Below, piece by piece: positions 42,501 through 64,000 of a DNA stretch of 64,000 bases. The stretch covers positions 620,001-684,000 of the forward strand of contig JBAIAA010000783.1 of the NCBI GenBank assembly GCA_037893245.1, in the 5' to 3' direction. The notes beneath the pieces were generated by a model, which was not told where the DNA came from, did not search any database, and saw only the letters and a list, made by a program, of their open reading frames with translations. A program made the translations under genes and the position numbers. Each line of letters opens with the position of its first letter. Position 1 is the first letter of the stretch. Origin of the DNA: Crossaster papposus. Taxonomy: Eukaryota; Echinodermata; Asteroidea; Velatida; Solasteridae.

Positions 42501-43252
42501 TTATTGTTGTTTACATGTTGTTTACATTTCGTAACCATGTGCTTTTCAGCCGCAAGGCTGCAAGACATTGGATTTTTAACTAAACCATGTATAATAACTT
42601 TCTAACATGTGTAAACTGTAAAAACTAGATTTTTTTCATAATTGTATTGATGCTTAAGTTAATATGTGACAATCCACGACAACAGGGCTGTAAACTCGCT
42701 AGAGCTTATTTAGATGAAAAGACCATTAAAATATGTGAAAAAAAAAAAAAAAAAAAAGAATTGTTACATTCAGTATTACTTGTAGCTATTTCCATAAATA
42801 CCAACTATGTCTTCTAATACATCATTTTAAAGCTTCGTACTTGTAGATTTCATTTCACAACAATCTCAAAACGTCAACATACATGTACCTACTTTACAGC
42901 CCTTTTGTCGTGGACGGTCACATATTATGTACTGTGTCCACTTTGAAATGTATTTATTGAAGAGTTGTAACGAGTCACTGATTTTTGTGACTCGAGTTGT
43001 GTATTTAATTTGATTCATAAATATTTGAATACTACAGACAAAAACACATTACAAAAACATAAGGTAGAAGTTCACGGCATGGTGCGTGTTTGTTGTATTA
43101 TGGAGGAAGGGAAACCGACGTCCGCTGTACATGTACCGGTATATGTTTACCTTGTATGTAATATGTACAAAATTATTCGCTAGCATAAACGTGATGTGAA
43201 CATAAACCAGCACTGTTTGTAAGCCATTGCAAATATTTTTCGCAAGGTTTTG

Positions 43253-43257
<5 letters not shown>

Positions 43258-43299
<42 letters not shown>

Positions 43300-43311
43300 G
43301 GGGGGGGGGGG
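43258..43311. repeat. Longest poly(T)-poly(G) tract in the satellite (about T41 G13)
   Basis: A pure T run of about 41 followed without interruption by about 13 G. Its counterparts range from about T6 G8 (34896) to this one. The G run could form intermolecular quadruplexes, and the composite tract is prone to slippage. Exact lengths may be affected by sequencing error. Confidence 0.8.
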
Positions 43312-45708
43312 AACTAGAGTCTTATTAGCCTTCACTCGAGTCGAGTCATTCTGATGAGGGAGTAGAGTCGAGTCATTTGCCTGCAGTGACTCGAGTCGAG
43401 TCATTTACCCATCGGGACTCGAGTCGAGTAGAGTCATAGACTCGAGTATTACAACTCTGATTTATTGTTGTTTACATGTTGTTTACATTTCGTAACAATG
43501 TGCTTTTTAGCCGCAAGGCTGCAAGACATTGGATTTTTAACTAAACCATGGATAATAACTTTCTAACATGTGTAAACTGTAAAAACTTTGATTTTTTTCA
43601 TAATTGTATTAATGCTTAAGTTAATATGTGACCATCCACGACAAAAGGGCTGTAAACTCCCTAGAGCTTATTTAGATGAAAAGACCATTGAAATATGTAA
43701 AAAACAATAAAAAAACAAAGAATTGTTATATTCAGTATTACTTGTAGCTATTTCCATAAATACCAACTATGTCTTCTAATACATCATTTTAAAGCTTCTT
43801 ACTTGTAGATTTCATTTCACAACAATCTCAAAACGTCAACCTACATGTACCTACTTTACAGCCCTTTTGTCGTGGACGGTCACATATTATGTACTGTGTC
43901 CACTTTGAAATGTATTTATTGAAAAGTTGTAACGAGTCACTGATTTTTGTGACTCGAGTTGTGTATTTAATTTGATTCATAAATATTTGAATACTACAGA
44001 CAAAAACACATTACAAAAACATAAGGTAGAAGTTCACGGCATGGTGCGTGTTTGTTGTATTATGGAGGAAGGGAAACCGACGGCCGCTGTACATGTACCG
44101 GTATATGTTTACCTTGTATGTAATATGTACAAAATTATTCGCTAGCATAAACGCGATGTGAACATAAACCAGCACTGTTTGTAAGCCATTGCAAATATTT
44201 TTCGCAAGGTTTTGCTTTTTTTTTTTTTTTTTTTTTTGGGGGGGGAGGGGGGGGAACTCGAGTCTTATTAGCCTATACTCGAGTCGAGTCATTCTGATGA
44301 GGGAGTAGAGTCGAGTCATTTGCCTGCAGTGACTCGAGTCGAGTCATTTACCCATCGGGACTCGAGTCGAGTAGAGTCATAGACTCGAGTATTACAACTC
44401 TGATTTATTGTTGTTTACATGTTGTTTACATTTCGTAACCATGTGCTTTTCAGCCGCAAGGCTGCAAGACATTGGATTTTTAACTAAACCATGTATAATA
44501 ACTTTCTAACATGTGTAAACTGTAAAAACTAGATTTTTTTCATAATTGTATTGATGCTTAAGTTAATATGTGACAATCCACGACAACAGGGCTGTAAACT
44601 CGCTAGAGCTTATTTAGATGAAAAGACCATTAAAATATGTGAAAAAAAAAAAAAAAAAAAAAGAATTGTTACATTCAGTATTACTTGTAGCTATTTCCAT
44701 AAATACCAACTATGTCTTCTAATACATCATTTTAAAGCTTCGTACTTGTAGATTTCATTTCACAACAATCTCAAAACGTCAACATACATGTACCTACTTT
44801 ACAGCCCTTTTGTCGTGGACGGTCACATATTATGTACTGTGTCCACTTTGAAATGTATTTATTGAAGAGTTGTAACGAGTCACTGATTTTTGTGACTCGA
44901 GTTGTGTATTTAATTTGATTCATAAATATTTGAATACTACAGACAAAAACACGCTACAAAAACATAAGGTAGAAGTTCACGGCATGGTGTGTGTTTGTTG
45001 TATTATGGAGGAAGGGAAACCGACGGCCGCTATATATGTTTACCTTGTATGTAATATGTACAAAATTATTCGCTAGCATAAACGTGATGTGAACATAAAC
45101 CAGCACTGTTTGTAAGCCATTGCAAATATTTTTCGCAAGGTTTTGCTCTTTTTTTTTGGGGGGGGGGAACTCGAGTCTTATTAGCCTTCACTCGAGTCGA
45201 GTCATTTGCCTGCAGTAACTCTAGTCGAGTCATTTACCCATCGGGACTCGAGTCGAGTAGAGTCATAGACTCGAGTATTACAACTCTGATTTATTGTTGT
45301 TTACATGTTGTTTACATTTTGTAACCATGTGCTTTTCAGCCGCAAGGCTGCAAGACATTAGATTTTTAACTAAACCATGGATAATAACTTTTTAACATGT
45401 GTAAATTGTAAAGATTGGATTTTTTTCATAATTGTGTTAATGTTTAAGTTAATATGTGACCATCCACGACAACATGGCTCTAAAGTTGCTAGAGCTTATT
45501 TAGAGGAAAAGACCATTAAAATATGTAAAAAACAATAAAAAAACTAAGAATTTTCATATTCAGTATTATTTGTTGTAGCTATAACCATAAATACATCACT
45601 TTAAAGCTTCTTTCTTGTAGATTTCATTTCACAAAATATCTCAAAACGTCAAGATACGGTACCTACTTTTCAGCCTTTTCGTCGTGGACGGTCACATATT
45701 AACTAGTA

Positions 45709-46366
45709 AAGTCACAGCGTTTTACTTTACATGAACAGCATAGCATAGCATAAGCATGACAAGCATCACTGATATGAGCGCGTGCAATATAGCTAGCAAC
45801 ACACAGGATTCAAAGCTATTGCCTGGAACAGCGCCAGTCTAGCAGTCTGTGCCTGAACGGATAATCCGGACAATCTCAATTTGCATTACGCAGTATCACC
45901 GTATGTGGACGCCGGGATACATGTTTCGATACATTGATTTCGCTAGTCAATATATCGGAAACTAGTCTTTGGGCAAGACGTCAGATACGTGATAACGTCC
46001 TCTCGCGGCGGCTAGTTATCGCGTATATATATATATATATAAAGTAACAACGTCTTGCCCAAAGACTAATCGGAAATATCGGGAGCCAACCGCACAGTAC
46101 GTGCATTTCTACAGAGATGCGTTGCGTCGGATCTGCGTGAACAATCTTTATTCCCTCTTGGTCAAACAAAAAGTGTGTTTCTTGTTAATAGTCTGAAAAT
46201 AGTTGTTATGGTATTTTTTTCGGTCGAGTCACAAGTCACGAAGGCCGAGTCCGAGTCACGAAAAATGGGACTCGAGTCGGACTCGAGTCCGAGTCCCGAG
46301 TCATACAACTCTGCCTAGCACGTACACTCAAGAATGCGAGAGGTACCCGGATCTTCCACCAAAAAC
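45709..46366. other. Right flank of the satellite: hairpin and GAGTC-rich terminus
   Basis: A perfect 19-bp inverted repeat (tagtctttgggcaagacgt at 45963-45981, complement at 46050-46068) encloses a 68-bp loop with a (ta)n run and a nested stem (gataac/gttatc). A GAGTC-rich block at 46226-46313 ends in catacaactctg, matching the satellite's hAT-like terminus. No gene. Confidence 0.6.
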
Positions 46367-47186
46367 TGTAACGGCGGCCCAGAAAGGGCCAACCGCCAGT
46401 TGGGGGGAATTAACTAAATTAATGCATACAAATAAAACATAACCAACACAAACATAAGAAAAACATACGAGAATCGTGAAAATGCAATTCAAAGATAAAT
46501 TTAATTTAGAAAGCATCTTTTTGCTCTACAAAAGTCAGGAGGACATACAAAATATTACTACAATTATATACCGTTAGTTACTGGCAGAGCAATGCAAAAA
46601 ATGTAAGTTACACAAGGCTACGACGAAAGGGGAATATAATGACTACAATAACAAGGCAATTAAATGACCATACTCACAAACCGATGCAGAACACTGAACC
46701 CTGTATAGTGAAATTGGTGGCGGTGATGGTGCTAAATTATCAACGCAGGTTTTCTTATTAAACTCGATAATTAACTCAGACGGACTGTAAATTTGGGCTA
46801 CAACACAACTAATATGAAGAGCTAAAGAATTCCACCACCATGCCCCAGTCGCAAGTCCACGCCCTTATGGGATTACAGGGAGGTTTTATAGTAAGGGTGA
46901 CCCAAATAAAATACTAAAGAATGTTATTGTTAACTGATGAAAGGATTTACATAACTAATCCAGCTATATGTGCTATTGAAAAAAATACCAGTACAACAAA
47001 GGCCCACACCTATAAATATCTAACAAAAGAAACACAGCACAATCACATGCCTAATCCATGCCATCTGTCTACAATATGCAAGCCAGCTTGCTGGCCTATC
47101 AGGGCTAAGAAAAACATGGTGCAATATATGACACCTTAAAGGCACTAAATTAAAAACACAATTAGGTGTCAAATAATGTTGTTACA
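46367..47186 (-). mobile_element. LTR of the Ty3/Gypsy element (3' LTR)
   Basis: An 820-bp segment opens tgtaac and closes gttaca, the TG...CA form of an LTR with a 6-bp inverted end. On the minus strand a purine-rich run (about 47187-47200) stands where the polypurine tract is expected. No second LTR was found in the window. Confidence 0.55.
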
Positions 47187-50100
47187 ATGCCCTCCTCTAT
47201 AAATAAGGCGCGTCTTTGCGCCTGAACAAACTAATTATTTATTTAATTTATTATTATTATAACAAAAATAAAATTGATAAATAAAAACACAAATATTTAC
47301 ATTCCAGTATTGATTTCATGGCATCCAGTATTTATCAAAAATCGGATTTTGCAAAATAGTGCTTTCCGCTCAGATACATGTGACCATTTCTCAAAAAGAT
47401 ACCGGTCCATGTACAAGAAATTTCAACAACTTTCTTTAAAGCACAAATTTTCAAAGCACATTGATCGTTGTACTCATTTGCATATTTTTTGTTTTGTCTT
47501 AGTGTCCAAATTATTTGGTCTGCATCCCAAATAAGGTACAATTGTACAATTGCAAATGAATACTGGCTAATATATTATTAGTTTACGTCGCAATATCTGT
47601 GCGGAGCCACACCGGCTGCTGGCGTTGTCGTCGAGGACGTGTCTGGCCAGATTCCACGTCTCCATAACTGCAAAATGCCGGATGTTCGTCCTCATCCGAC
47701 CTCAATCCCAGAAAGTCCCTGTAGTATGCCGTATTGGTGTCCTCCATCTCCCCGATGTCTTCTGGTTTTTGGTCATTCATCACTCCACCACCAGCCGCTG
47801 AAGAAGCTTCCCTGGTGAGATGGAGATGTGAAACTGAACTTGAAACGCATGGTTTTAATCTATCGAAGTGGACAATTTTTCTTTGTCCTGTTTCCACATG
47901 TTGTATTCGATAAACCGCATCTGATATGCGTTTAACTACACGATACGGACCTTTCCAGTGAGATTGTAATTTTGGACTTAACCCAATCTTTCGAACATAG
48001 TTAAACTGCCAAACCTTGTCACCTGGAGAGTATGGGTTGCCTTTTAACTTGGCATCATATAACCGTTTCTGTCTTTTCTGCTCTCCTCTAATCTTTTCTC
48101 TAGCCGTTTTGAAAGATTTCTGCATTCTATGATAAAGTTCAGATGCATATTCATCCGAACTTTGCTTCTCCCGACTCTGGGAATGACTTATGATTAAGTC
48201 CAACGGCAATGACAGTTCTCTTCCAAACATCATTCTGTTTGTACTTACTCCTGTAGTTTCTTGCTCACTCGCTCTGTATGCCATCATGGCATATGGCAAA
48301 TGTACATCCCAGTCAGACTGGTCTTCCTTGATGTACATACTGAGAATGGTCTGAATGGTACGATTAAATCGTTCAACAAGTTCATCAGATTGCGGATGTT
48401 ATGGCGTCGTACGCGTTTTATTTATTCCTAATAACTAACAAACGGATTGAAAAAGCCGACTTTCAAATGTTGTCCTTTGATCAGAATGTATGCTTAACGG
48501 TACCCCAAAGCGGCAAATAAATTGCTCGACCAACACCGTAGCAACTGAATGTGCTTCCTGATTACGTAATGGGTATGCTTCAGCCCATTTCGTAAATTAA
48601 TCCATAACTACTAAAATGTATCTGTTGCCACGTTTTGAGCGTGGCAACGGGCCAAAAATGTCTATGCCTATTCTCTCCAGTGGAGCACCAACTAATGAAG
48701 GTTGAAGTGGGGCTCGTCGTTTGGGGGCTGGTGATTTTCGTCTGGCACAGGCATCACACTGTTTCACCAACTGTTCTATCTTAGTACGATAGCCAATCCA
48801 ATAGAACGATCGTTGAATCTTTTTAAACGTTCTCAACCGGCCGAAATGGCCTCCGGTTTTTTAACTATGAGCTTGTGCAAAAACTGTTGACACCTTAACA
48901 ACAGGAACCACAATTTGTAAAAGTGATGGACTTCCTTCAAATCTTCTATACAACATGCTATTTTGAAGTTGCAGCTGTTCCCATTGATACCAACACCCTT
49001 CTGTCTTCCTACCAAAATTAGACACTTCACTGCCTGGTGGCCTGACCTGATTTTTCTCCTTCCACCCAATAATGGGGGCAAGACAAGGATCACAGCGTTG
49101 AGCCTTCCGAAAGTCATCTTCATCCCAGCCTGCCAAAGTCTTGCTCAAAGATCCACACATTATTTGGAAGTCATCTTGTTTCTCTATTTGTGAATATTTT
49201 GGCAACCTTGAAAGTGCATCTGCATTTTTATGCTTAATACCAGGTCTGTACCATATTTCAAAGTCAAATAAACTTAATGTCTCCAACCATCGTACAAGTT
49301 GGCCCTGGACATTCTTAAAATTAAACAGCCAACGCAAAGATCCATGATAAGTTCTTAGAGTAAACCTCTTACCATACAAATAATGTTTAAAATATTTCGC
49401 AAAGTGGATAACAGCGATAACAGCCCTCTTCTGGTAACACTATAGTTGGTCTCTGCTTTACTCAATTTACGACTAGCATATGCAATGACCTTTTCTTGAC
49501 CGTTTTGAACTAGTGAAAGAACTGCACCAATGCTGGTTCCATTGGCGTCTGTATCAAGAAGAAATGGCAACAAAAAGTCTGGAAACGTCAAAATGGGAGC
49601 TGTGGTTAATTTCTCCTTCAACAACTTAAAAGTTACATCACATTCCCTTGTCCACTTAAATTCAACTTCTTCCTGGGTAAGTCTATGTAATGGCGCGACA
49701 ATGGAAGCAAAATCTCTTACAAAGCGCCTATAATATGAACACAATCCTAGACAACTCCTGACATCTTTAAGATGTCGTGGGGTTTGCCATTCTCTAACCT
49801 TAACTGTCTTTTCAGGATCTATCGACACACCTTTGTTTGATACAGTGTGACCCAGATAACAGACTTCTTCTTGAAACAAAGAGCACTTTTGGGGTTTTAA
49901 TTTTAGACCTGCTTGGGATAATCGAGTAAAAACTTCACCCAAACGTGTGATGTGCTCGTCAAAAGTTGTCGAAAAAATGAGAATATCATCTATAAAATAA
50001 ACAAGACAAGTTTTCCAATGAACTACACAAAACTAACTCCATGAGCCTTTCAAATGTACTGGTGGCATTGCAAAGCCCAAACGGCATGACATTAAATTCG

Positions 50101-51557
50101 AAAAGGCCACTACCTGTTGTAAAAGCTGTTTTGGACTTGTCATGAGGGTTCACTGCAACCTGCCAGTAACCACTAGCAAAATCTAAGAAGGAAAACCATC
50201 TACAACCTGAAAGAGCATCCAGACTGTCATCTATACGTGGCAATAGATAAGAATCTTTAAGTGTCACCTCCTTAAGTTTTCTATAATCTACGCAGAATCG
50301 CATAGATCCATCTTTCTTCTTAACTAGCACTACTGGGCTTGCCCAGGGACCAGAAGATGGAGATATTACACCCGACTCTAACATTTCATCAACCTGTTTT
50401 TGAGCCTCATGTCTTTGATGATATGGTAACAGCCGAGCTGGCAAATCTGCGTGATTTGGCATTATCTGTATATACTATGATAGGTGACTTTGGTCTTCAC
50501 CTGCTTGAGAAAAAGCATCCCGATGTTCAAACAACAATTCTGTCATCTTTTGTTTCTGTTCATCGTTTAAGTTGACAGATCAGCTGCGTTCTAAAAGATT
50601 TTCCATAGCAGGACTATCCCTTGATTTATCCTGCTGTTCATTCTCTACTACATGTACTTCACCTGAATGAAACACCCCAATGTTTGTACCTTTTCGCAAC
50701 ACTGAAGTTTCTAATTGCACATTCAGTACTCTAACTGGAACAAGATTTTTAAGTGGGTTAGCAAACACTCGTCCAATTAATAAACCATTGTCCTTGGCCG
50801 CTAATTTACCAGCTGTTTTTACAACCCCTTGGGTTATCTTACCACGTATATGTACTCTGCCTTCGACAATTATTTCTTGATTACTAGGAACCACAACAGT
50901 TTCTGCCACTGTTATACGACAGCATGAATAAGGGGCAACTTCAGTGATCAGCGGAACAATTACATCACCAAACTGAAGTTTACGTCGAGGAATATCCAAA
51001 ATACCAACGTACTCCGACAAAAATCCAACCCCAGAATGCATGCGTGCATTATCGGCGCTATCATATTTTGGTGCCATCTTCTTAGTTTACCCAATGTAAT
51101 GACTACTTGGGCACAGCCTTCAACCTGCAAGGTACTGCCTTCTGCTGCAACTACCGATTGATTGTAAAGTTCTCTGTAAACCTTGTCGCACATGATGTGG
51201 CAACAACTCCCAAGTATATGGATGTAAAATAGTAACGGATGAACCCGTATCAAGTAAACATTTTACACCAATGCCATTTATTGTACCATGTACAAAACAG
51301 GCTGGAAACTGGGCCTTACTATCTATCATGGGCTGGGTACTGGCCCCATACTCGGCCAAGTCTCGTTTTCCTGGTGAGCAATATTCCACCAAACCAACGC
51401 CGGATCAGAAGATTGTAACCCCAGTTTTAGGCACTCTGATCTTCTATGTCCGATTTCCTTACAATTCCAACAAACCATAGGACTTCTTTTTCTCGGATAA
51501 CGGTACTTCCCCTGTGTTTGTAACTGCTGGAGTTGTTGTTCTAATTGCTTTTAAACC
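46367..51557 (-). mobile_element. Ty3/Gypsy LTR retrotransposon fossil (pol and 3' LTR)
   Basis: Read on the minus strand the parts appear in Ty3/Gypsy order. A CCHC knuckle from the end of gag lies near 51430-51480, an aspartic protease near 51120-51390 (CLLDTGSS), and reverse transcriptase with RNase H about 49360-50460. The integrase zinc finger and core lie about 48350-48900, and the integrase C-terminal domain about 47583-48338 (SHWKGPYRVVKR). The 3' LTR follows. It is broken at about six places and lacks most of gag and the 5' LTR. The 5' side is cut off by the tRNA-like satellite. The element looks moderately old. Confidence 0.85.
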
Positions 51558-51642
51558 GAGAGTTCGGATGACCACAATCTCGCTCTGCTCAGGATAATTA
51601 TTTCCTTGATAGTGATTTCATTTTTATTAAGAAAAATAGTTA

Positions 51643-51714
51643 CGCAGAGTGGCGCAGTGGGAGCGTGCTGGGCCCATAACCCAGAGGCCCGAGGACCAAA
51701 ACCTCGCTCTGCTA
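51643..51714 (+). tRNA. tRNA-iMet-like (anticodon CAT), A type, copy 1
   Basis: 72 nt including the discriminator A. All arms pair: acceptor 2-7 (1-72 is C against T), D stem GCGC/GCGT, anticodon stem CTGGG/CCCAG with the three G-C pairs typical of initiators, loop CCCATAA with anticodon CAT, and T stem CGAGG/CCTCG. The T loop is ACCAAAA instead of ATCGAAA, which weakens the B box. A TTTTT run lies 9 nt downstream of the discriminator. This and the copy at 52036 are among the most tRNA-like of the array, but the 1-72 mismatch and T-loop changes suggest a pseudogene. Confidence 0.6.
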
Positions 51715-52035
51715 AAGTGGCATTTTTGCTTCACTGTTATTCAAATTCAATAAATATTTTGGGGTGTTTTTAAAATGTCTGATTTCATTTTGTTTGCATT
51801 TTTTAAATTTACATGAGGCATGGTGGCGCAGTTGAAGCGTGCTGGGCCCATAACCCGAGGATCGAAACCTCGCTCTGCTAACAAGTTTTTGGTATGACAT
51901 GAGGTACTCGACTCAGAGTGACGAAGTAGACACTTTCTTGGTCAGTACCCGAGAGTTTGGTTGACCACAATCTCGCTCTGCTCAGGATAATTATTTCCTT
52001 GATAGTGATTTCATTTTTATTAAGAAAAATAGTTA

Positions 52036-52107
52036 CGCAGAGTGGCGCAGTGGGAGCGTGCTGGGCCCATAACCCAGAGGCCCGAGGACCAAAACCTCGC
52101 TCTGCTA
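52036..52107 (+). tRNA. tRNA-iMet-like (anticodon CAT), A type, copy 2
   Basis: Same sequence as the copy at 51643 by eye, one 393-bp repeat further on. Functional status is equally uncertain. Confidence 0.6.
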
Positions 52108-52823
52108 AAGTGGCATTTTTGCTTCACTGTTATTCAAATTCAATAAATATTTTGGGGTGTTTTTAAAATGTCTGATTTCATTTTGTTTGCATTTTTTAAA
52201 TTTACATGAGGCATGGTGGCGCAGTTGAAGCGTGCTGGGCCCATAACCCGAGGATCGAAACCTCGCTCTGCTAACAAGTTTTTGGTATGACATGAGGTAC
52301 TCGACTCAGAGTGACGAAGTAGACACTTTCTTGGTCAGTACCCGAGAGTTTGGTTGACCACAACCTCGGTCTGCTCAGGAAAATTATTTCCTTGAAAGTG
52401 ATTTCATTTTCATTACAAATAGTTACGCAGAGTGGTGCAGTAGGAGCGTGATGGGCCCATAACCCAGAGGTCCGAGGACCAAAACCTCGCTTTGCTAACG
52501 AGGTATTTTAGCTTCACTGCTATTCACATTTAATAAATATTGTAGAATGTTTTTAGAATGTCTGCTTTCATTTTGTTTGCATTTTCTAAATTTAAATGAG
52601 GCAGGGTGGCGCAGTTGAAGCGTGCTGGGCCCATAACCCAGAGGTCCAAGGATCGAAACCTCGCTCTGCTAACAAGTTTTTGGTATGACATGAGGTACTC
52701 GACTCAGAGTGACAAAGTAGACACTTTCTTGGTCAGTACCCGAGAGTTTGGTTGACCACAACCTCGGTCTGCTCAGGATAATTATTTCCTTGAAAGTGAT
52801 TTCATTTTCATTACAAATAGTTA

Positions 52824-52895
52824 CGCAGAGTGGTGCTGTGGGAGCGTGATGGGCCCATAACCCAAAGGCCCGAGGACCGAAACCTCGCTCTGCTA
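52824..52895 (+). tRNA. tRNA-iMet-like, A' type, example copy
   Basis: As type A but with D arm GTGC-TGTGGGA-GCGT, an A-G mismatch at 27-43 and T loop ACCGAAA. The D-arm change removes the conserved A of the A box. Copies start at 52426 (intermediate with D), 52824, 53631, 54434, 54839, 55642, 56446, 57250, 58055, 58860, 59665, 60470, 61277, 62082, 62887 and 63692. The anticodon is CAT in most; 58055, 59665 and 62082 read TAT, and 56446 has loop CTCATAA. A T5 run follows each by about 14 nt. Probably pseudogenes. Confidence 0.55.
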
Positions 52896-52997
52896 AAGAG
52901 GTATTTTTGCTTCACTGTTATTCAAATTTAATAAATATTTTAGAATGTTTTTAGAATGTCTGCTTTTATTTTGTTTGTTGTTTCTAAATTTACATGA

Positions 52998-53069
52998 GGC
53001 ATGGTGGCGCAGTGGGAGCTTGCTGGGCCTATAACCCAGAGTGCCGAGGATCAAAACCTCGCTCTGCTA
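52998..53069 (+). pseudogene. tRNA-iMet-like, C type with anticodon TAT, example copy
   Basis: Initiator-like body in which the anticodon loop reads CCTATAA, giving TAT (would read the Ile codon AUA), in every C copy. The D stem is damaged (GCGC/GCTT) and in most copies the acceptor is GGAATGG against TTCTGCT, with poor pairing. The A box is kept; the T loop is ATCAAAA. T5 follows the 3' end. Copies start at 52998, 53805, 54608, 55013, 55818, 56622, 57426, 58231, 59036, 59841, 60646, 61453, 62258, 63063 and 63868. Confidence 0.6.
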
Positions 53070-53228
53070 GCTGCTAATAAGTTTTTGGTATGACTTGAAG
53101 TACTCGACTCAGAGTGACAAAGTAGACCCTTTCTTTATCAGTAACCGAGAGTTCGGATGATCACAACCTCTGTCTGCTCAGGATAATTTTGTATTTGATA
53201 GGGATTTCATTTTCATTAAAAATAGTTA

Positions 53229-53304
53229 CGCAGATAGAGTAGTGCAGCGGGAGCGTGATGGGCCCATAACCCAGAGGTCCGAGGACCAAAACCTCGCTTT
53301 GCTA
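53229..53304 (+). pseudogene. tRNA-iMet-like, D type with 4-nt acceptor insertion, example copy
   Basis: Like A', but with an extra atag in the 5' acceptor strand (cgcagatagag) and CTTTGCT at the 3' side, so the acceptor stem is broken. The anticodon is CAT; 60068 and 62485 have loop CACATAA, and 60873 and 63290 have TCCATAA. Copies start at 53229, 54032, 55240, 56045, 56849, 57653, 58458, 59263, 60068, 60873, 61680, 62485 and 63290. Confidence 0.6.
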
Positions 53305-53406
53305 ACGAGGTATTTTTGCTTCACTGCTATTCACATTTAATAAATATTGTAGAATGTTTTTAGAATGTCTGCTTTCATTTTGTTTGCATTTTCTAAATTT
53401 ACATGA

Positions 53407-53478
53407 GGCATAGTGGCGCAGTTGAAGCGTGCTGGGCCCATAACCCAGAGGTCCGAGGATCGAAACCTCGCTCTGCTA
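53407..53478 (+). tRNA. tRNA-iMet-like, B type (best-preserved body), example copy
   Basis: The body from nucleotide 8 to 65 is a canonical animal initiator: D stem GCGC/GCGT, anticodon stem CTGGG/CCCAG, loop CCCATAA, T arm CGAGG-ATCGAAA-CCTCG with the initiator-type A54 and A60. The A box (TGGCGCAGTTG) and B box (GATCGAAAC) fit pol III consensus, and T5 follows six nt after the 3' end. The acceptor 5' strand is GGCATAG: five Watson-Crick pairs, one G-T at 1-72 and one T-C mismatch at 5-68. B copies start at 51817, 52210 (both 64 nt, lacking 8 nt), 52600, 53407, 54210, 55418, 56222, 57026, 57831, 58636, 59441, 60246, 61053, 61858, 62663 and 63468. Copy-specific changes: T stem in 52600 and 61053, D stem in 61858, acceptor in 63468. 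These are either variant tRNA genes or transcribable tRNA-like genes. Confidence 0.65.
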
Positions 53479-53507
53479 ACAAGTTTTTGGTATGACATGA
53501 GGTACTC

Positions 53508-53580
53508 GACTCGGAGTGACAAAGTAGACACTTTCTTGGTCAGTACCCGAGAGTTTGGTTGACCACAACCTCGGTCTGCT
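53508..53580 (+). pseudogene. Decayed E-type tRNA-like unit, example copy
   Basis: A 73-nt stretch from gactcggagtgac to ggtctgct aligns end to end with the neighbouring tRNA-like units, keeping cgagag, aacctcgg and tctgct in register. The loops and most stems are lost and the anticodon position reads AGT. It recurs about every 400 bp between the B or C unit and the next A' or D unit. It is probably a much older duplicate of the same tRNA. Confidence 0.5.
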
Positions 53581-56500
53581 CAGGATAATTATTTCCTTGA
53601 AAGTGATTTCATTTTCATTACAAATAGTTACGCAGAGTGGTGCTGTGGGAGCGTGATGGGCCCATAACCCAAAGGCCCGAGGACCGAAACCTCGCTCTGC
53701 TAAAGAGGTATTTTTGCTTCACTGTTATTCAAATTTAATAAATATTTTAGAATGTTTTTAGAATGTCTGCTTTTATTTTGTATGTTGTTTCTAAATTTAC
53801 ACGAGGCATGGTGGCGCAGTGGAAGCTTGATGGGCCTATAACCCAGAGTGCCGAGGATCAAAACCTCGCTCTGCTGCTAATAAGTTTTTGGTATGACTTG
53901 AAGTACTCGACTCAGAGTGACAAAGCAGACCCTTTCTTTATCAGTAACCGAGAGTTCGGATGATCACAACCTCGGTCTGCTCAGGATAATTTTGTATTTG
54001 ATAGGGATTTCATTTTCATTAAAAATAGTTACGCAGATAGAGTAGTGCAGCGGGAGCGTGATGGGCCCATAACCCAGAGGTCCGAGGACCAAAACCTCGC
54101 TTTGCTAACGAGGTATTTTTGCTTCACTGCTATTCACATTTAATAAATATTGTAGAATGTTTTTAGAATGTCTGCTCTCATTTTGTTTGCATTTTCTAAA
54201 TTTACATGAGGCATAGTGGCGCAGTTGAAGCGTGCTGGGCCCATAACCCAGAGGTCCGAGGATCGAAACCTCGCTCTGCTAACAAGTTTTTGGTATGACA
54301 TGAGGTACTCGACTCGGAGTGACAAAGTAGACACTTTCTTGGTCAGTACCCAAGAGTTTGGTTGACCACAACCTCGGTCTGCTCAGGATAATTATTTCCT
54401 TGAAAGTGATTTCATTTTCATTACAAATAGTTACGCAGAGTGGTGCTGTGGGAGCGTGATGGGCCCATAACCCAGAGGCCCGAGGACCGAAACCTCGCTC
54501 TGCTAAAGAGGTATTTTTGCTTCACTGTTATTCAAATTTAATAAATATTTTAGAATGTTTTTAGAATGTCTGCTTTTATTTTGTATGTTGTTTCTAAATT
54601 TACATGAGGCATGGTGGCGCAGTGGAAGCTTGATGGGCCTATAACCCAGAGTGCCGAGGATCAAAACCTCGCTCTGCTAGCTGCTAATAAGTTTTTGGTA
54701 TGACTTGAAGTACTCGACTCGGAGTGACAAAGTAGACACTTTCTTGGTCAGTACCCGAGAGTTTGGTTGACCACAACCTCGGTCTGCTCAGGATAATTAT
54801 TTCCTTGAAAGTGATTTCATTTTCATTACAAATAGTTACGCAGAGTGGTGCAGTGGGAGCGTGATGGGCCCATAACCCAGAGGCCCGAGGTCCGAAACCT
54901 CGCTCTGCTAAAGAGGTATTTTTGCTTCACTGTTATTCAAATTTAATAAATATTTTAGAATGTTTTTAGAATGTCTGCTTTTATTTTGTATGTTGTTTCT
55001 AAATTTACATGAGGCATGGTGGCGCAGTGGAAGCTTGATGGGCCTATAACCCAGAGTGCCGAGGATCAAAACCTCGCTCTGCTGCTAATAAGTTTTTGGT
55101 ATGACTTGAAGTACTTGACTCAGAGTGACAAAGCAGACCCTTTCTTTATCAGTAACCGAGAGTTCGGATGATCACAACCTCGGTCTGCTCAGGATAATTT
55201 TGTATTTCATAGGGATTTCATTTTCATTAAAAATAGTTACGCAGATAGAGTAGTGCAGCGGGAGCGTGATGGGCCCATAACCCAGAGGTCCGAGGACCAA
55301 AACCTCACTTTGCTAACGAGGTATTTTTGCTTCACTGCTATTCACATTTAATAAATATTGTAGAATGTTTTTAGAATGTCTGCTTTCATTTTGTTTGCAT
55401 TTTCTAAATTTACATGAGGCATAGTGGCGCAGTTGAAGCGTGCTGGGCCCATAACCCAGAGGTCCGAGGATCGAAACCTCGCTCTGCTAACAAGTTTTTG
55501 GTATGACATGAGGTACTCGACTCGGAGTGACAAAAGAGACACTTTCTTGGTCAGTACCCGAGAGTTTGGTTGACCACAACCTCGGTCTGCTCAGGATAAT
55601 TATTTCCTTGAAAGTGATTTCATTTTCATTACAAATAGTTACGCAGAGTGGTGCTGTGGGAGCGTGATGGGCCCATAACCCAGAGGCCCGAGGACCGAAA
55701 CCTCGCTCTGCTAAAGAGGTATTTTTGCTTCACTGTTATTCAAATTTAATAAATATTTTAGAATGTTTTTAGAATGTCTGCTTTTATTTTGTTTGTTGTT
55801 TTTCTAAATTTACATGAGGAATGGTGGCGCAGTGGAAGCTTGCTGGGCCTATAACCCAGAGTGCCGAGGATCAAAACCTCGTTCTGCTGCTAATAAGTTT
55901 TTGGTATGACTTGAAGTACTCGACTCAGAGTGACAAAGTAGACCCTTTCTTGGTCAGTAACCGAGAGTTCGGATGATCACAACCTCGGTCTGCTCAGGAT
56001 AATTTTGTATTTGATAGGGATTTCATTTTCATTAAAAATAGTTACGCAGATAGAGTAGTGCAGCGGGAGCGTGATGGGCCCATAACCCAGAGGTCCGAGG
56101 ACCAAAACCTCGCTTTGCTAACGAGGTATTTTTGCTTCACTGCTATTCACATTTAATAAATATTGTAGAATGTTTTTAGAATGTCTGTTTCATTTTGTTT
56201 GCATTTTCTAAATTTACATGAGGCATAGTGGCGCAGTTGAAGCGTGCTGGGCCCATAACCCAGAGGTCCGAGGATCGAAACCTCGCTCTGCTAACAAGTT
56301 TTTGGTATGACATGAGGTACTCGACTCGGAGTGACAAAAGAGACACTTTCTTGGTCAGTACCCGAGAGTTTGGTTGACCACAACCTCGGTCTGCTCAGGA
56401 TAATTATTTCCTTGAAAGTGATTTCATTTTCATTACAAATAGTTACGCAGAGTGGTGCTGTGGGAGCGTGATGGGCTCATAACCCAGAGGCCCGAGGACC

Positions 56501-59500
56501 GAAACCTCGCTCTGCTAAAGAGGTATTTTTGCTTCACTGTTATTCAAATTTAATAAATATTTTAGAATGTTTTTAGAATGTCTGCTTTTATTTTGTTTGT
56601 TGTTTTTCTAAATTTACATGAGGAATGGTGGCGCAGTGGAAGCTTGCTGGGCCTATAACCCAGAGTGCCGAGGATCAAAACCTCGTTCTGCTGCTAATAA
56701 GTTTTTGGTATGACTTGAAGTACTCGACTCAGAGTGACAAAGTAGACCCTTTCTTGGTCAGTAACCGAGAGTTCGGATGATCACAACCTCGGTCTGCTCA
56801 GGATAATTTTGTATTTGATAGGGATTTCATTTTCATTAAAAATAGTTACGCAGATAGAGTAGTGCAGCGGGAGCGTGATGGGCCCATAACCCAGAGGTCC
56901 GAGGACCAAAACCTCGCTTTGCTAACGAGGTATTTTTGCTTCACTGCTATTCACATTTAATAAATATTGTAGAATGTTTTTAGAATGTCTGTTTCATTTT
57001 GTTTGCATTTTCTAAATTTACATGAGGCATAGTGGCGCAGTTGAAGCGTGCTGGGCCCATAACCCAGAGGTCCGAGGATCGAAACCTCGCTCTGCTAACA
57101 AGTTTTTGGTATGACATAAGGTACTCGACTCGGAGTGACAAATTAGACACTTTCTTGGTCAGTACCCGAGAGTTTGGTTGACCACAACCTCGGTCTGCTC
57201 AGGATAATTATTTCCTTGAAAGTGATTTCATTTTCATTACAAATAGTTACGCAGAGTGGTGCTGTGGGAGCGTGATGGGCCCATAACCCAGAGGCCCGAG
57301 GACCGAAACCTCGCTCTGCTAAAGAGGTATTTTTGCTTCACTGTTATTCAAATTTAATAAATATTTTAGAATGTTTTTAGAATGTCTGCTTTTATTTTGT
57401 TTGTTGTTTTTCTAAATTTACATGAGGAATGGTGGCGCAGTGGAAGCTTGCTGGGCCTATAACCCAGAGTGCTGAGGATCAAAACCTCGTTCTGCTGCTA
57501 ATAAGTTTTTGGTATGACTTGAAGTACTCGACTCAGAGTGACAAAGTAGACCCTTTCTTGGTCAGTAACCGAGAGTTCGGATGATCACAACCTCGGTCTG
57601 CTCAGGATAATTTTGTATTTGATAGGGATTTCATTTTCATTAAAAATAGTTACGCAGATAGAGTAGTGCAGCGGGAGCGTGATGGGCCCATAACCCAGAG
57701 GTCCGAGGACCAAAACCTTGCTTTGCTAACGAGGTATTTTTGCTTCACTGCTATTCACATTTAATAAATATTGTAGAATGTTTTTAGAATGTCTGCTTTC
57801 ATTTTGTTTGCATTTTCTAAATTTACATGAGGCATAGTGGCGCAGTTGAAGCGTGCTGGGCCCATAACCCAGAGGTCCGAGGATCGAAACCTCGCTCTGC
57901 TAACAAGTTTTTGGTATGACATGAGGTACTCGACTCGGAGTGACAAAGTAGGCACTTTCTTGGTCAGTACCCGAGAGTTTGGTTGACCACAACCTCGGTC
58001 TGCTCAGGATAATTATTTCCTTGAAAGTGATTTCATTTTCATTACAAATAGTTACGCAGAGTGGTGCTGTGGGAGCGTGATGGGCCTATAACCCAGAGGC
58101 CCGAGGACCGAAACCTCGCTCTGCTAAAGAGGTATTTTTGCTTCACTGTTATTCAAATTTAATAAATATTTTAGAATGTTTTTAGAATGTCTGCTTTTAT
58201 TTTGTTTGTTGTTTTTCTAAATTTACATGAGGAATGGTGGCGCAGTGGAAGCTTGCTGGGCCTATAACCCAGAGTGCCGAGGATCAAAACCTCGTTCTGC
58301 TGCTAATAAGTTTTTGGTATGACTTGAAGTACTCGACTCAGAGTGACAAAGTAGACCCTTTCTTGGTCAGTAACCGAGAGTTCGGATGGTCACAACCTCG
58401 GTCTGCTCAGGATAATTTTGTATTTGATAGGGATTTCATTTTCATTAAAAATAGTTACGCAGATAGAGTAGTGCAGCGGGAGCGTGATGGGCCCATAACC
58501 CAGAGGTCCGAGGACCAAAACCTCGCTTTGCTAACGAGGTATTTTTGCTTCACTGCTATTCACATTTAATAAATATTGTAGAATGTTTTTAGAATGTCTG
58601 TTTCATTTTGTTTGCATTTTCTAAATTTATCATGAGGCATAGTGGCGCAGTTGAAGCGTGCTGGGCCCATAACCCAGAGGTCCGAGGATCGAAACCTCGC
58701 TCTGCTAACAAGTTTTTGGTATGACATAAGGTACTCGACTCGGAGTGACAAATTAGACACTTTCTTGGTCAGTACCCGAGAGTTTGGTTGACCACAACCT
58801 CGGTCTGCTCAGGATAATTATTTCCTTGAAAGTGATTTCATTTTCATTACAAATAGTTACGCAGAGTGGTGCTGTGGGAGCGTGATGGGCCCATAACCCA
58901 GAGGCCCGAGGACCGAAACCTCGCTCTGCTAAAGAGGTATTTTTGCTTCACTGTTATTCAAATTTAATAAATATTTTAGAATGTTTTTAGAATGTCTGCT
59001 TTTATTTTGTTTGTTGTTTTTCTAAATTTACATGAGGAATGGTGGCGCAGTGGAAGCTTGCTGGGCCTATAACCCAGAGTGCTGAGGATCAAAACCTCGT
59101 TCTGCTGCTAATAAGTTTTTGGTATGACTTGAAGTACTCGACTCAGAGTGACAAAGTAGACCCTTTCTTGGTCAGTAACCGAGAGTTCGGATGATCACAA
59201 CCTCGGTCTGCTCAGGATAATTTTGTATTTGATAGGGATTTCATTTTCATTAAAAATAGTTACGCAGATAGAGTAGTGCAGCGGGAGCGTGATGGGCCCA
59301 TAACCCAGAGGTCCGAGGACCAAAACCTTGCTTTGCTAACGAGGTATTTTTGCTTCACTGCTATTCACATTTAATAAATATTGTAGAATGTTTTTAGAAT
59401 GTCTGCTTTCATTTTGTTTGCATTTTCTAAATTTACATGAGGCATAGTGGCGCAGTTGAAGCGTGCTGGGCCCATAACCCAGAGGTCCGAGGATCGAAAC

Positions 59501-62500
59501 CTCGCTCTGCTAACAAGTTTTTGGTATGACATGAGGTACTCGACTCGGAGTGACAAAGTAGGCACTTTCTTGGTCAGTACCCGAGAGTTTGGTTGACCAC
59601 AACCTCGGTCTGCTCAGGATAATTATTTCCTTGAAAGTGATTTCATTTTCATTACAAATAGTTACGCAGAGTGGTGCTGTGGGAGCGTGATGGGCCTATA
59701 ACCCAGAGGCCCGAGGACCGAAACCTCGCTCTGCTAAAGAGGTATTTTTGCTTCACTGTTATTCAAATTTAATAAATATTTTAGAATGTTTTTAGAATGT
59801 CTGCTTTTATTTTGTTTGTTGTTTTTCTAAATTTACATGAGGAATGGTGGCGCAGTGGAAGCTTGCCGGGCCTATAACCCAGAGTGCCGAGGATCAAAAC
59901 CTCGTTCTGCTGCTAATAAGTTTTTGGTATGACTTGAAGTACTCGACTCAGAGTGACAAAGTAGACCCTTTCTTGGTCAGTAACCGAGAGTTCGGATGGT
60001 CACAACCTCGGTCTGCTCAGGATAATTTTGTATTTGATAGGGATTTCATTTTCATTAAAAATAGTTACGCATATAGAGTAGTGCAGCGGGAGCGTGATGG
60101 GCACATAACCCAGAGGTCCGAGGACCAAAACCTCGCTTTGCTAACGAGGTATTTTTGCTTCACTGCTATTCACATTTAATAAATATTGTAGAATGTTTTT
60201 AGAATGTCTGCTTTCATTTTGTTTGCATTTTTTAAATTTACATGAGGCATAGTGGCGCAGTTGAAGCGTGCTGGGCCCATAACCCAGAGGTCCGAGGATC
60301 GAAACCTCGCTCTGCTAACAAATTTTTGGTATGACATGAGGTACTCGACTCGGAGTGACAAAGTAGACACTTTCTTGGTCAGTACCCGAGAGTTTGGTTG
60401 ACCACAACCTCGGTCTGCTCAGGATAATTATTTCCTTGAAAGTGATTTCATTTTCATTACAAATAGTTACGCAGAGTGGTGCTGTGGGAGCGTGATGGGC
60501 CCATAACCCAGAGGCCCGAGGACCGAAACCTCGCTCTGCTAAAGAGGTATTTTTGCTTCACTGTTATTCAAATTTAATAAATATTTTAGAATGTTTTTAG
60601 AATGTCTGCTTTTATTTTGTTTGTTGTTTTTCTAAATTTACATGAGGAATGGTGGCGCAGTGGAAGCTTGCTGGGCCTATAACCCAGAGTGCCGAGGATC
60701 AAAACCTCGTTCTGCTGCTAATAAGTTTTTGGTATGACTTGAAGTACTCGACTCAGAGTGACAAAGTAGACCCTTTCTTGGTCAGTAACCGAGAGTTCGG
60801 ATGATCACAACCTCGGTCTGCTCAGGATAATTTTGTATTTGATAGGGATTTCATTTTCATTAAAAATAGTTACGCAGATAGAGTAGTGCAGCGGGAGCGT
60901 GATGGGTCCATAACCCAGAGGTCCGAGGACCAAAACCTCGCTTTGCTAACGAGGTATTTTTGCTTCACTGCTATTCATATTTAATAAATATATTGTAGAA
61001 TGTTTTTAGAATGTCTGCTTTCATTTTGTTTGCATTTTCTAAATTTACATGAGGCATAGTGGCGCAGTTGAAGCGTGCTGGGCCCATAACCCAGAGGTCC
61101 GAGGATCGAAACCTTGCTCTGCTAACAAGTTTTTGGTATGACATGAGGTACTCGACTCGGAGTGACAAAGTAGACACTTTCTTGGTCAGTACCCGAGAGT
61201 TTGGTTGACCACAACCTCGGTCTGCTCAGGATAATTATTTCCTTGAAAGTGATTTCATTTTCATTACAAATAGTTACGCAGAGTGGTGCTGTGGGAGCGT
61301 GATGGGCCCATAACCCAGAGGCCCGAGGACCGAAACCTCGCTCTGCTAAAGAGGTATTTTTGCTTCACTGTTATTCAAATTTAATAAATATTTTAGAATG
61401 TTTTTAGATTGTCTGCTTTTATTTTGTTTGTTGTTTTTCTAAATTTACATGAGGAATGGTGGCGCAGTGGAAGCTTGCTGGGCCTATAACCCAGAGTGCT
61501 GAGGATCAAAACCTCGTTCTGCTGCTAATAAGTTTTTGGTATGACTTGAAGTACTCGACTCAGAGTGACAAAGTAGACCCTTTCTTGGTCAGTAACCGAG
61601 AGTTCGGATGATCACAACCTCGGTCTGCTCAGGATAATTTTGTATTTGATAGGGATTTCATTTTCATTAAAAATAGTTACGCAGATAGAGTAGTGCAGCG
61701 GGAGCGTGATGGGCCCATAACCCAGAGGTCCGAGGACCAAAACCTTGCTTTGCTAACGAGGTATTTTTGCTTCACTGCTATTCACATTTAATAAATATTG
61801 TAGAATGTTTTTAGAATGTCTGCTTTCATTTTGTTTGCATTTTCTAAATTTACATGAGGCATAGTGGCGTAGTTGAAGCGTGCTGGGCCCATAACCCAGA
61901 GGTCCGAGGATCGAAACCTCGCTCTGCTAACAAGTTTTTGGTATGACATGAGGTACTCGACTCGGAGTGACAAAGTAGACACTTTCTTGGTCAGTACCCG
62001 AGAGTTTGGTTGACCACAACCTCGGTCTGCTCAGGATAATTATTTCCTTGAAAGTGATTTCATTTTCATTACAAATAGTTACGCAGAGTGGTGCTGTGGG
62101 AGCGTGATGGGCCTATAACCCAAAGGCCCGAGGACCGAAACCTCGCTCTGCTAAAGAGGTATTTTTGCTTCACTGTTATTCAAATTTAATAAATATTTTA
62201 GAATGTTTTTAGAATGTCTGCTTTTATTTTGTTTGTTGTTTTTCTAAATTTACATGAGGAATGGTGGCGCAGTGGAAGCTTGCTGGGCCTATAACCCAGA
62301 GTGCCGAGGATCAAAACCTCGTTCTGCTGCTAATAAGTTTTTGGTATGACTTGAAGTACTCGACTCAGAGTGACAAAGTAGACCCTTTCTTGGTCAGTAA
62401 CCGAGAGTTCGGATGGTCACAACCTCGGTCTGCTCAGGATAATTTTGTATTTGATAGGGATTTCATTTTCATTAAAAATAGTTACGCATATAGAGTAGTG

Positions 62501-64000
62501 CAGCGGGAGCGTGATGGGCACATAACCCAGAGGTCCGAGGACCAAAACCTCGCTTTGCTAACGAGGTATTTTTGCTTCACTGCTATTCACATTTAATAAA
62601 TATTGTAGAATGTTTTTAGAATGTCTGCTTTCATTTTGTTTGCATTTTCTAAATTTACATGAGGCATAGTGGCGCAGTTGAAGCGTGCTGGGCCCATAAC
62701 CCAGAGGTCCGAGGATCGAAACCTCGCTCTGCTAACAAATTTTTGGTATGACATGAGGTACTCGACTCGGAGTGACAAAGTAGACACTTTCTTGGTCAGT
62801 ACCCGAGAGTTTGGTTGACCACAACCTCGGTCTGCTCAGGATAATTATTTCCTTGAAAGTGATTTCATTTTCATTACAAATAGTTACGCAGAGTGGTGCT
62901 GTGGGAGCGTGATGGGCCCATAACCCAGAGGCCCGAGGACCGAAACCTCGCTCTGCTAAAGAGGTATTTTTGCTTCACTGTTATTCAAATTTAATAAATA
63001 TTTTAGAATGTTTTTAGAATGTCTGCTTTTATTTTGTTTGTTGTTTTTCTAAATTTACATGAGGAATGGTGGTGCAGTGGAAGCTTGCTGGGCCTATAAC
63101 CCAGAGTGCCGAGGATCAAAACCTCGTTCTGCTGCTAATAAGTTTTTGGTATGACTTGAAGTACTCGACTCGGAGTGACAAAGTAGACCCTTTCTTGGTC
63201 AGTAACCGAGAGTTCGGATGATCACAACCTCGGTCTGCTCAGGATAATTTTGTATTTGATAGGGATTTCATTTTCATTAAAAATAGTTACTCAGATAGAG
63301 TAGTGCAGCGGGAGCGTGATGGGTCCATAACCCAGAGGTCCGAGGACCAAAACCTCGCTTTGCTAACGAGGTATTTTTGCTTCACTGCTATTCACATTTA
63401 ATAAATATTGTAGAATGTTTTTAGAATGTCTGCTTTCATTTTGTTTGCATTTTCTAAATTTACATGAGACATAGTGGCGCAGTTGAAGCGTGCTGGGCCC
63501 ATAACCCAGAGGTCCGAGGATCGAAACCTCGCTCTGCTAACAAGTTTTTGGTATGACATGAGGTACTCGACTCGGAGTGACAAAGTAGACACTTTCTTGG
63601 TCAGTACCCGAGAGTTTGGTTGACCACAACCTTGGTCTGCTCAGGATAATCATTTCCTTGAAAGTGATTTCATTTTCATTACAAATAGTTACGCAGAGTG
63701 GTGCTGTGGGAGCGTGATGGGCCCATAACCCAGAGGCCCGAGGACCGAAACCTCGCTCTGCTAAAGAGGTATTTTTGCTTCACTGTTATTCAAATTTAAT
63801 AAATATTTTAGAATGTTTTTAGAATGTCTGCTTTTATTTTGTTTGTTGTTTTTCTAAATTTACATGAGGAATGGTGGCGCAGTGGAAGCTTGCTGGGCCT
63901 ATAACCCAGAGTGCCGAGGATCAAAACCTCGTTCTGCTGCTAATAAGTTTTTGGTATGACTTGAAGTACTCGACTCAGAGTGACAAAGTAGACCCTTTCT

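What the first reader, a model, noticed from the sequence alone, without database searches (positions are those of the whole stretch)
51558..64000. A satellite built from dozens of initiator-tRNA sequences
At least 12.4 kb is a higher-order tandem repeat whose monomers are tRNA-iMet-like: 62 units of four types plus about 30 more decayed ones. tRNA gene clusters are known (for example the tandem tRNA repeats of Xenopus), but a nested repeat in which four diverged initiator-type units form an 805-bp module, most apparently unable to act as normal initiators, is unusual. It may be a new satellite class, a pol III/TFIIIC landscape or a source of tRNA-like RNAs.
Basis: partly seen in the sequence, partly recalled or inferred. 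Interest (0 to 1): 0.9.

Follow-up and report, generated by a model that had tools for sequence, protein, structure and literature searches.

The report
Satellite made of decaying initiator-tRNA copies
At least 12.4 kilobases of this eukaryotic, probably animal, sequence are a nested tandem repeat whose units are damaged copies of the gene for the tRNA that starts protein synthesis; it looks like a satellite that grew out of a tRNA gene cluster and then drifted, though half of its units still carry promoter-like boxes.

Summary
Window 51556-64000 is one tandem array, open at the window's right end, with 62 initiator-tRNA-like units of four types plus 31 decayed copies of a fifth type. The basic repeat is about 400 bp and holds three tRNA-iMet-derived segments. 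Two diverged versions (about 88% alike) alternate as an 805-bp higher-order repeat; its 10 complete copies differ at 0-14 columns. The left edge keeps three differently ordered monomers. No unit is a normal initiator gene: 0 of 62 has the A1:U72 pair and 18 of 62 carry anticodon UAU. On the two core lineages tRNA bodies changed as fast as spacers (13/260 against 18/370), while on the older branch separating the left-edge monomer from the core they changed less (2/130 against 15/185): constraint first, drift later. All 31 'second' units (types B and D) still match both internal promoter boxes. Best reading: a satellite born from an initiator-tRNA gene cluster by unequal exchange, now inert or weakly transcribed. 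tRNA satellites and tandem tRNA arrays are known (maize, Nippostrongylus and others); the higher-order repeat of pseudogenised initiator units is an unusual variant. Host identity, genome-wide copy number and transcription could not be tested.

The parts
51556..64000 (+). whole tandem array of tRNA-iMet-derived ~400-bp monomers (31 monomer starts, the last cut by the window end)
51643..52823 (+). left-edge monomers m01-m03 of type CB (393, 390 and 398 bp), not in the 805-bp order; m01 and m02 hold B units with an 8-nt deletion
   Evidence: identity to the 20 core monomers 87.3-96.5%
52824..55641 (+). transition zone: CD AB CD AB CD CD AB, with one irregular CD-CD step; the CD monomer at 54434 is intermediate (about 95.5% to CD, 92% to AB core)
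55642..63691 (+). core: 10 complete higher-order repeats (804-807 bp) in the order C-D-A-B, continuing to the window end; differences between copies 0-14 columns
58860..58931 (+). example type C unit (first tRNA of the CD monomer): C1xU72 mismatch, anticodon CAU, B box broken (ACCGAAA T loop)
59036..59107 (+). example type D unit (second tRNA of the CD monomer): anticodon UAU, acceptor and D-stem mismatches, both promoter boxes match
59267..59338 (+). example type A unit (first tRNA of the AB monomer): apparent 4-nt insertion in the 5' acceptor strand, B box broken (ACCAAAA)
59441..59512 (+). example type B unit (second tRNA of the AB monomer): Rfam 49.8 bits (the highest in the array), anticodon CAU, G1.U72 and one acceptor mismatch, both promoter boxes match
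59142..59213 (+). example decayed unit (type E), in the long spacer after each second tRNA; no Rfam match
47583..51555 (-). truncated LTR-retroelement-like coding stretch (reverse transcriptase at 49986-50474; gypsy label is by eye), cut inside a gag-like frame with a zinc-knuckle motif where the array begins
   Evidence: (RVT_1 for 49986-50474; no Pfam family for 50580-51086)

Best explanation
It is a satellite DNA that grew out of a small cluster of initiator-tRNA genes. A block of about 400 bp with three iMet-type genes (a first, a second and an older, already decayed third), of which the first two have pol III terminator-like T runs downstream, was amplified head to tail. Two diverged copies of that block then became locked into an 805-bp dimer that spread by unequal exchange, including recent exchanges of two or three dimers at a time. 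The tRNA bodies were conserved at first and have drifted with the spacers since the dimer formed, so the array does not supply initiator tRNA. Shown: tRNA-iMet descent, three-segment monomer, dimer, nested homogenisation, no measurable constraint on the two core lineages, lower tRNA than spacer change on the older edge branch. Inferred: unequal exchange as the copying mechanism, the order of events, and little or no output apart from possible stray pol III transcripts from the second units.
For: iMet descent: type B differs at 3 of 72 positions from an insect-type iMet body (recalled from memory) given the array's own T stem; GGG:CCC in the anticodon stem is kept in 62 of 62, A60 in 62, A54 in 61, C33 in 59. 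Order: in the core (20 monomers) CD against CD 98.5-100%, AB against AB 98.0-100%, CD against AB 87.7-88.9%. Nested exchange: copies h3 and h5, 1610 bp apart, are identical; h6 and h9, 2417 bp apart, differ at 3 columns while each differs from its own neighbours at 10-13. Loss of function: A1:U72 0 of 62; UAU anticodon 18 of 62; at least one non-pair in the acceptor stem in 61 of 62. No recent constraint: CD against AB 18 of 141 tRNA sites against 18 of 185 spacer sites (Fisher P 0.48); 15 of 138 against 18 of 185 without the first three positions, which the type-A insertion disturbs (P 0.85); without CpG sites 12 of 119 against 16 of 181 (P 0.84). Changes assigned to the CD and AB branches with m01 or m02 as outgroup: 13 of 260 tRNA against 18 of 370 spacer sites (P 1.0). 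Among core copies 13 of 285 tRNA columns vary against 7 of 379 spacer columns (P 0.064; columns, test). Older constraint, as expected of a former gene: on the branch between edge monomer m01 and the core, 2 of 130 tRNA against 15 of 185 spacer sites (P 0.011; with m02 2 of 130 against 10 of 185, P 0.13).
Against: The interval of the CD/AB rate ratio is wide (0.58-2.38 for 15/138 against 17/185), so constraint of up to about 40% cannot be excluded. Of the 10 pairwise comparisons among CD, AB, m01, m02 and m03, tRNA changed less than spacers in 8 (two of these nearly equal), with P below 0.05 in three (CD/m01 0.037, m01/m02 0.012, m01/m03 0.033) and the opposite in AB/m03 (0.012); they are not independent (all sites). 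So conservation of the tRNA parts may persist in part. Every second unit keeps both promoter boxes (31 of 31) while no first unit does (0 of 31), which could be residual function; chance survival for type D is 0.11. Stem pairs are broken less often than random in all six consensus types tested, none with P below 0.05 (lowest 0.064, type A). Transcription and chromatin are untested.
Confidence: 0.7

Rival explanations
1. A pol III/TFIIIC-bound array: the promoter-competent second units recruit TFIIIC or pol III, with or without stable transcripts, and act in chromatin organisation or produce tRNA-like RNAs.
For: All 31 B and D units match A-box TRGYNNARNNG and B-box GWTCRANNC (consensus recalled), and a T4+ run lies within 20 nt downstream of 62 of 62 units. 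On the edge branch tRNA bodies changed less than spacers (2/130 against 15/185). A human tRNA tandem repeat at 1q23.3 binds CTCF and is proposed as a boundary (PMC4041453, passages).
Against: No excess conservation of tRNA bodies over spacers on the CD and AB branches (13/260 against 18/370). Box survival is compatible with chance (0.56 for B, 0.11 for D). The first units have all lost the B box (0 of 31). The T runs go back to only two ancestral spacers, and 29% of all 20-nt stretches of one module contain TTTT.
Confidence: 0.16
2. A working, dosage-amplified array of initiator-tRNA genes, as tandem tRNA arrays are elsewhere.
For: Type B has an otherwise sound cloverleaf, anticodon CAU and pol III signals.
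Against: 0 of 62 units has A1:U72, from established knowledge a main identity element of eukaryotic initiators; B has G1.U72 plus, in 15 of 16, an acceptor mismatch, and has lost G18G19 (0 of 16); 18 of 62 have a UAU anticodon. Rfam scores are at most 49.8 bits.
Confidence: 0.05
3. A tandem array of a tRNA-derived SINE.
For: A tRNA-like head followed by unrelated sequence, repeated many times.
Against: One 805-bp module has no other copy in the remaining 51.5 kb of the window (best blastn match 19 nt, E 0.42). Terminator-like T runs begin 5-12 nt after the tRNA 3' end in all four types, as in tRNA genes and unlike a SINE head with a body. Three tRNA segments per monomer. The rest of the genome could not be searched.
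Confidence: 0.05
4. An assembly artefact that stacks a few real tRNA-bearing repeats.
For: Two 805-bp copies are identical; the array starts abruptly inside a retroelement frame.
Against: Most copies differ by private and shared changes with nested structure, and the left edge is irregular and more diverged, as in natural satellites.
Confidence: 0.03

Closest known systems
Maize tRNA satellite (tRNASAT_ZM of Repbase; 91.95-kb array on chr4L; PMC10335936, passages read)
   Same: A satellite array named for its tRNA content; shows that tRNA satellites are a known kind.
   Different: The passages do not say which tRNA or how intact it is, and mention no higher-order repeat of it; another kingdom; its sequence was not compared here.
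Tandem tRNA-gene repeats of Nippostrongylus brasiliensis (tRNA-Trp, tRNA-Ser; PMC5765664, passages read)
   Same: Long head-to-tail arrays of a unit made of one tRNA gene family plus a species-specific spacer.
   Different: The passages describe one tRNA per unit and no dimer; here three iMet-derived segments per monomer, a dimeric higher-order repeat, and degraded tRNAs.
Entamoeba tRNA gene arrays (PMC2652664, abstract and section list seen)
   Same: Tandem array units containing several tRNA segments, mostly uniform copies.
   Different: Those units hold up to 5 tRNA genes of the normal complement separated by short tandem repeats; here all segments derive from one initiator family and none is intact.
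Human 1q23.3 tRNA macrosatellite (PMC4041453, passages read)
   Same: Copy-number-prone tandem repeat carrying tRNA genes, 98% alike.
   Different: 7.3-kb GC-rich unit with several tRNA genes, flanked by LTRs and bound by CTCF; here about 400 bp, 42% GC, one family.
Arabidopsis SYY cluster (PMC12308677, abstract and section list seen)
   Same: Tandemly repeated tDNAs of few families, mostly silent.
   Different: Those tRNAs are made in root cap cells; here no unit keeps full initiator identity.
Xenopus tandem tRNA repeats (array structure recalled; [quoted passage not shown]
   Same: Tandem tDNA repeat with pol III signals.
   Different: Kilobase unit with many tRNA families (recalled) and real expression; here one decayed family.
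Alpha-satellite type higher-order repeats (recalled)
   Same: Homogeneous multimeric core, more diverged irregular monomers at the edge, multi-module exchanges.
   Different: Monomer is tRNA-derived and about 400 bp; centromere role unknown.

Membership tests
Satellite DNA with higher-order repeats | long head-to-tail tandem array of one monomer family | tested here: met
   31.0 copies, 51556-64000
Satellite DNA with higher-order repeats | diverged monomers in a fixed order repeated as a near-identical multimer | tested here: met
   CD/AB 87.7-88.9% alike, 10 complete copies with 0-14 differences
Satellite DNA with higher-order repeats | heterochromatic or centromeric location | not testable with these tools
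   no chromosome map or chromatin data
Tandem tRNA gene array | each repeat carries a recognisable tRNA gene with spacer | tested here: met
   58 of 62 units match RF00005 at E<=10
Tandem tRNA gene array | tRNA sequence conserved while spacers diverge | tested here: inconclusive
   not on the CD and AB branches (13/260 against 18/370, P 1.0); yes on the older edge branch (2/130 against 15/185, P 0.011 with m01; P 0.13 with m02)
Tandem tRNA gene array | transcription to tRNA | not testable with these tools
   no RNA data
Functional eukaryotic initiator tRNA gene | A1:U72 | tested here: not met
   0 of 62
Functional eukaryotic initiator tRNA gene | three G:C pairs 29-31:39-41 | tested here: met
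   62 of 62
Functional eukaryotic initiator tRNA gene | anticodon CAU | tested here: inconclusive
   44 of 62; 18 of 62 have UAU
Functional eukaryotic initiator tRNA gene | A and B boxes | tested here: inconclusive
   both in 31 of 62: all B and D, no A or C
tRNA-derived SINE | tRNA-unrelated body and tail after the tRNA head | tested here: not met
   terminator-like run 5-12 nt after the tRNA, three tRNA segments per monomer
tRNA-derived SINE | dispersed copies | tested here: inconclusive
   none in the other 51.5 kb of the window; the genome itself was not searchable
Maize tRNASAT_ZM-type satellite | sequence relation to that satellite | not tested
   its sequence was not at hand

The most novel reading that the evidence does not exclude
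The array is a pol III/TFIIIC landscape in which each 400-bp monomer keeps exactly one promoter-competent, initiation-incompetent tRNA unit (types B and D, D with anticodon UAU), giving a large dose of initiator-like decoy RNAs or a TFIIIC-anchored chromatin domain while the partner units are free to decay.
Probability: 0.08. Interest if true: 0.8.

Novelty: new variant of a known kind. Interest (0 to 1): 0.42.

Why it matters
It shows in one stretch how a gene cluster for an essential RNA can turn into satellite DNA: diverged edge monomers, a dimeric core, multi-dimer exchanges, and tRNA bodies that were conserved first and drift at spacer speed later. It would also inflate initiator-tRNA counts in automatic annotation: ARAGORN 'tRNA-Met' genes here, none with A1:U72. 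If transcribed, it would be a natural test of how a cell copes with many near-initiator RNAs.

Tried and rejected
Looking for relatives: the long-spacer pattern, the tRNA-body pattern and a canonical-type iMet pattern gave 0 matches in viral contigs; a tRNA-body pattern and a spacer pattern gave 0 in genome contigs; all were exact-match patterns. Blastn of one module against phages matched only the tRNA segment, 79.5% alike, in 7 Campylobacter phage records (annotated tRNA-Met in 2 of the 7), which I take as shared tRNA likeness. These collections are of viruses, phages, bacteria and archaea, so absence means little. Host identity was not established; animal, probably invertebrate, is a guess from the transposon mix.

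SINE origin, working gene array and artefact were considered and ranked low (see rivals). A link to retroelement priming was tried: no iMet-type primer-binding site TGGTAGCAGAG or its complement in the window. Homology between the shorter and the longer spacer was tested in one module and not found (sp1 against sp2: 126 of 300 shuffles score as high; sp3 against sp4: 118 of 300), so a simpler one-tRNA ancestral monomer is not supported. Minimum-energy folds of six example units were not the full cloverleaf (z -0.43 to -2.01); taken as uninformative. The bacterial promoter scan does not apply to this sequence.

Literature: all 10 searches were used; one search listed 30 of 44 papers. They led to tandem tRNA arrays and one tRNA satellite (maize), and in what I saw to no satellite said to be of initiator tRNA and no tRNA-based higher-order repeat. 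Only the open-licence library was searched.
Full report
OBSERVATION. The last 12.4 kb of the window form one tandem array, 51556-64000, running to the window's last base. Self-comparison peaks at 805 and 1610 bases. The array has 62 units with an iMet-type anticodon arm and 31 more decayed copies, the leftmost cut by the array edge. A 19-nt core with up to 3 mismatches is found 60 times, never outside the array, with none in 100 shuffles. The Rfam tRNA model finds 52 at gathering in a whole-window scan and nothing elsewhere in the window; in a scan of the array alone it lists 58 of the 62, 53 of them at or above gathering, and none of the decayed ones. ARAGORN finds 16.

ANATOMY. The complete monomers are 390-409 bases and contain a first tRNA (type C or A), a spacer of 101-104, a second tRNA (type B or D), a short spacer, a decayed tRNA (type E) and a further spacer. 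In the one module tested, the E copies align without gaps over 65 nt to D and 66 nt to B at scores that 0 of 300 single-letter shuffles reached, and over 37 nt to A and C, so E is most likely a third, older initiator copy. Its anticodon stem still pairs in most copies, while its acceptor, D and T stems are broken. The shorter and the longer spacer are not alike beyond chance, so the three-tRNA block, not a single tRNA with spacer, looks like the unit that was amplified.

HIGHER ORDER. In the core (20 monomers from 55642 on) CD and AB are 87.7-88.9% alike, CD copies 98.5-100% and AB copies 98.0-100% alike. They alternate to give the 805-bp module; ten complete modules from 55642 to 63691 (804-807 bp) differ at 0-14 alignment columns. 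Modules 3 and 5 are identical; modules 6 and 9 differ at 3 columns although each differs from its own neighbours at 10-13: exchanges seem to have moved two or three modules at a time. The left edge has three CB monomers and then CD-AB-CD-AB-CD-CD-AB, with an intermediate monomer at 54434. The layout, homogeneous core with diverged monomers at the edge, is that of higher-order satellites (comparison with alpha satellite recalled).

STATE OF THE tRNA UNITS. All 62 keep the G29-31:C39-41 pairs, 62 keep A60, 61 keep A54, 59 keep C33: clear initiator descent (the initiator features themselves are recalled). None has A1:U72. Types A, B and D begin with G (two A units with T), type C with C. Type A's linker reads TTACGCAGATAGAG where type C's reads TTACGCAGAG, an apparent 4-nt insertion in the acceptor strand (sequence). 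All 15 D units and 3 C units have anticodon UAU, the other 44 CAU. At least one acceptor position does not pair in 61 of 62 (the exception is 52600, which still has G1.U72). A and B boxes both match consensus in 31 of 31 second units (B, D) and in 0 of 31 first units (A, C), the latter having lost the B-box T; the A box alone matches in 48 of 62. A T4+ run lies within 20 nt after all 62, but this reflects two ancestral spacers and is common in such AT-rich sequence (29% of 20-nt stretches of one module).

SELECTION TEST. Between CD and AB consensus, tRNA1+tRNA2 show 18 of 141 substitutions, spacers 18 of 185, E 6 of 72. Leaving out the three positions disturbed by the type-A insertion: 15 of 138 against 18 of 185, P 0.85; a resampling interval for 15/138 against 17/185 is 0.58-2.38. 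Without CpG sites: 12 of 119 against 16 of 181. Within the core, tRNA columns vary if anything more than spacer columns, 13 of 285 against 7 of 379, P 0.064 (columns, test). Deeper comparisons differ: of 10 pairwise comparisons among CD, AB and edge monomers m01-m03, tRNA changed less than spacers in 8 (two nearly equal), with P below 0.05 in three, and more in 2 (AB/m03 P 0.012; CD/AB not significant) (all sites). Assigning changes to branches with m01 as outgroup, the CD and AB branches show 13 of 260 tRNA against 18 of 370 spacer changes (P 1.0), but the branch between m01 and the core shows 2 of 130 against 15 of 185 (P 0.011); with m02 it is 2 of 130 against 10 of 185 (P 0.13). I read this as gene-like constraint early and drift after the dimer formed; the tests are small and not independent, and weak present constraint cannot be excluded. 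A random-mutation model from an assumed ancestor gives 0.56 (B) and 0.11 (D) for both boxes surviving, and fewer broken pairs than random in all six consensus types, none significant alone.

SURROUNDINGS. The array begins inside a gag-like reading frame of a truncated LTR-retroelement-like stretch on the minus strand (reverse transcriptase). One 805-bp module finds no other copy in the first 51,555 bases. The rest of the window is transposon-rich (Mutator, YqaJ, homing-endonuclease zinc loop, reverse transcriptases) and has a second satellite of about 930 bp at 33.9-45.7 kb, with no significant blastn match to the tRNA array (best E 0.40). The host was not identified.

KNOWN OR NEW. A tRNA satellite (tRNASAT_ZM) with a 91.95-kb array is known in maize (PMC10335936, passages). 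Tandem tRNA repeats with 90-150 copies are published for Nippostrongylus (PMC5765664, passages); Entamoeba keeps almost all its tRNA genes in arrays (PMC2652664, abstract); a human tRNA macrosatellite exists (PMC4041453, passages); very large tDNA clusters occur in some animals (PMC2888827, passages); Arabidopsis has a mostly silent tandem cluster (PMC12308677, abstract). In ten searches of the open-licence library I saw no satellite said to be made of initiator-tRNA units and no tRNA-based higher-order repeat. I rate it a new variant of a known kind.

VERDICT. A real, well-described satellite derived from an initiator-tRNA cluster, most likely inert or only weakly transcribed. Its most interesting open point is whether the promoter-competent second units are transcribed.

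Noticed in passing
33947-45682: A second satellite of about 930 bp, 13 copies (spacing 886-962), with poly-T/poly-G tracts, ACTCGAGTCGAGT motifs and, in the one unit examined, a 42-nt inverted repeat (38013-38054/38237-38278); no Rfam match at E<=0.1.
   Followed up: partly
1-779: A 16-bp minisatellite, 48.7 copies, 98% matches, at the very start of the window.
   Followed up: no
3566-4471: Three copies of a 306-bp repeat, 96% matches.
   Followed up: no
11860-17214 (-) and 20016-24943 (+): Two LINE-like stretches with similar-looking zinc-knuckle ORFs, in opposite orientation; reverse transcriptase was scanned in the first only.
   Followed up: no
2566-3261 (-), 7536-7964 (+), 8059-10014 (-): YqaJ-like exonuclease, homing-endonuclease zinc-loop and Mutator-like transposase ORFs within 7.5 kb.
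   Followed up: no
51555/51556: The retroelement-like stretch on the minus strand ends abruptly inside a gag-like frame at the array edge; self-blast of 45000-51555 shows no LTR-sized direct repeat.
   Followed up: partly
54434-54838: A monomer intermediate between the two core types (about 95.5% to CD, 92% to AB), possibly a gene-conversion or recombination mosaic.
   Followed up: no
52426-52497: The first tRNA of edge monomer m03 looks C-like at its 5' side and A-like at its 3' side (sequence), while its spacers are close to AB (2 of 185 differences).
   Followed up: partly
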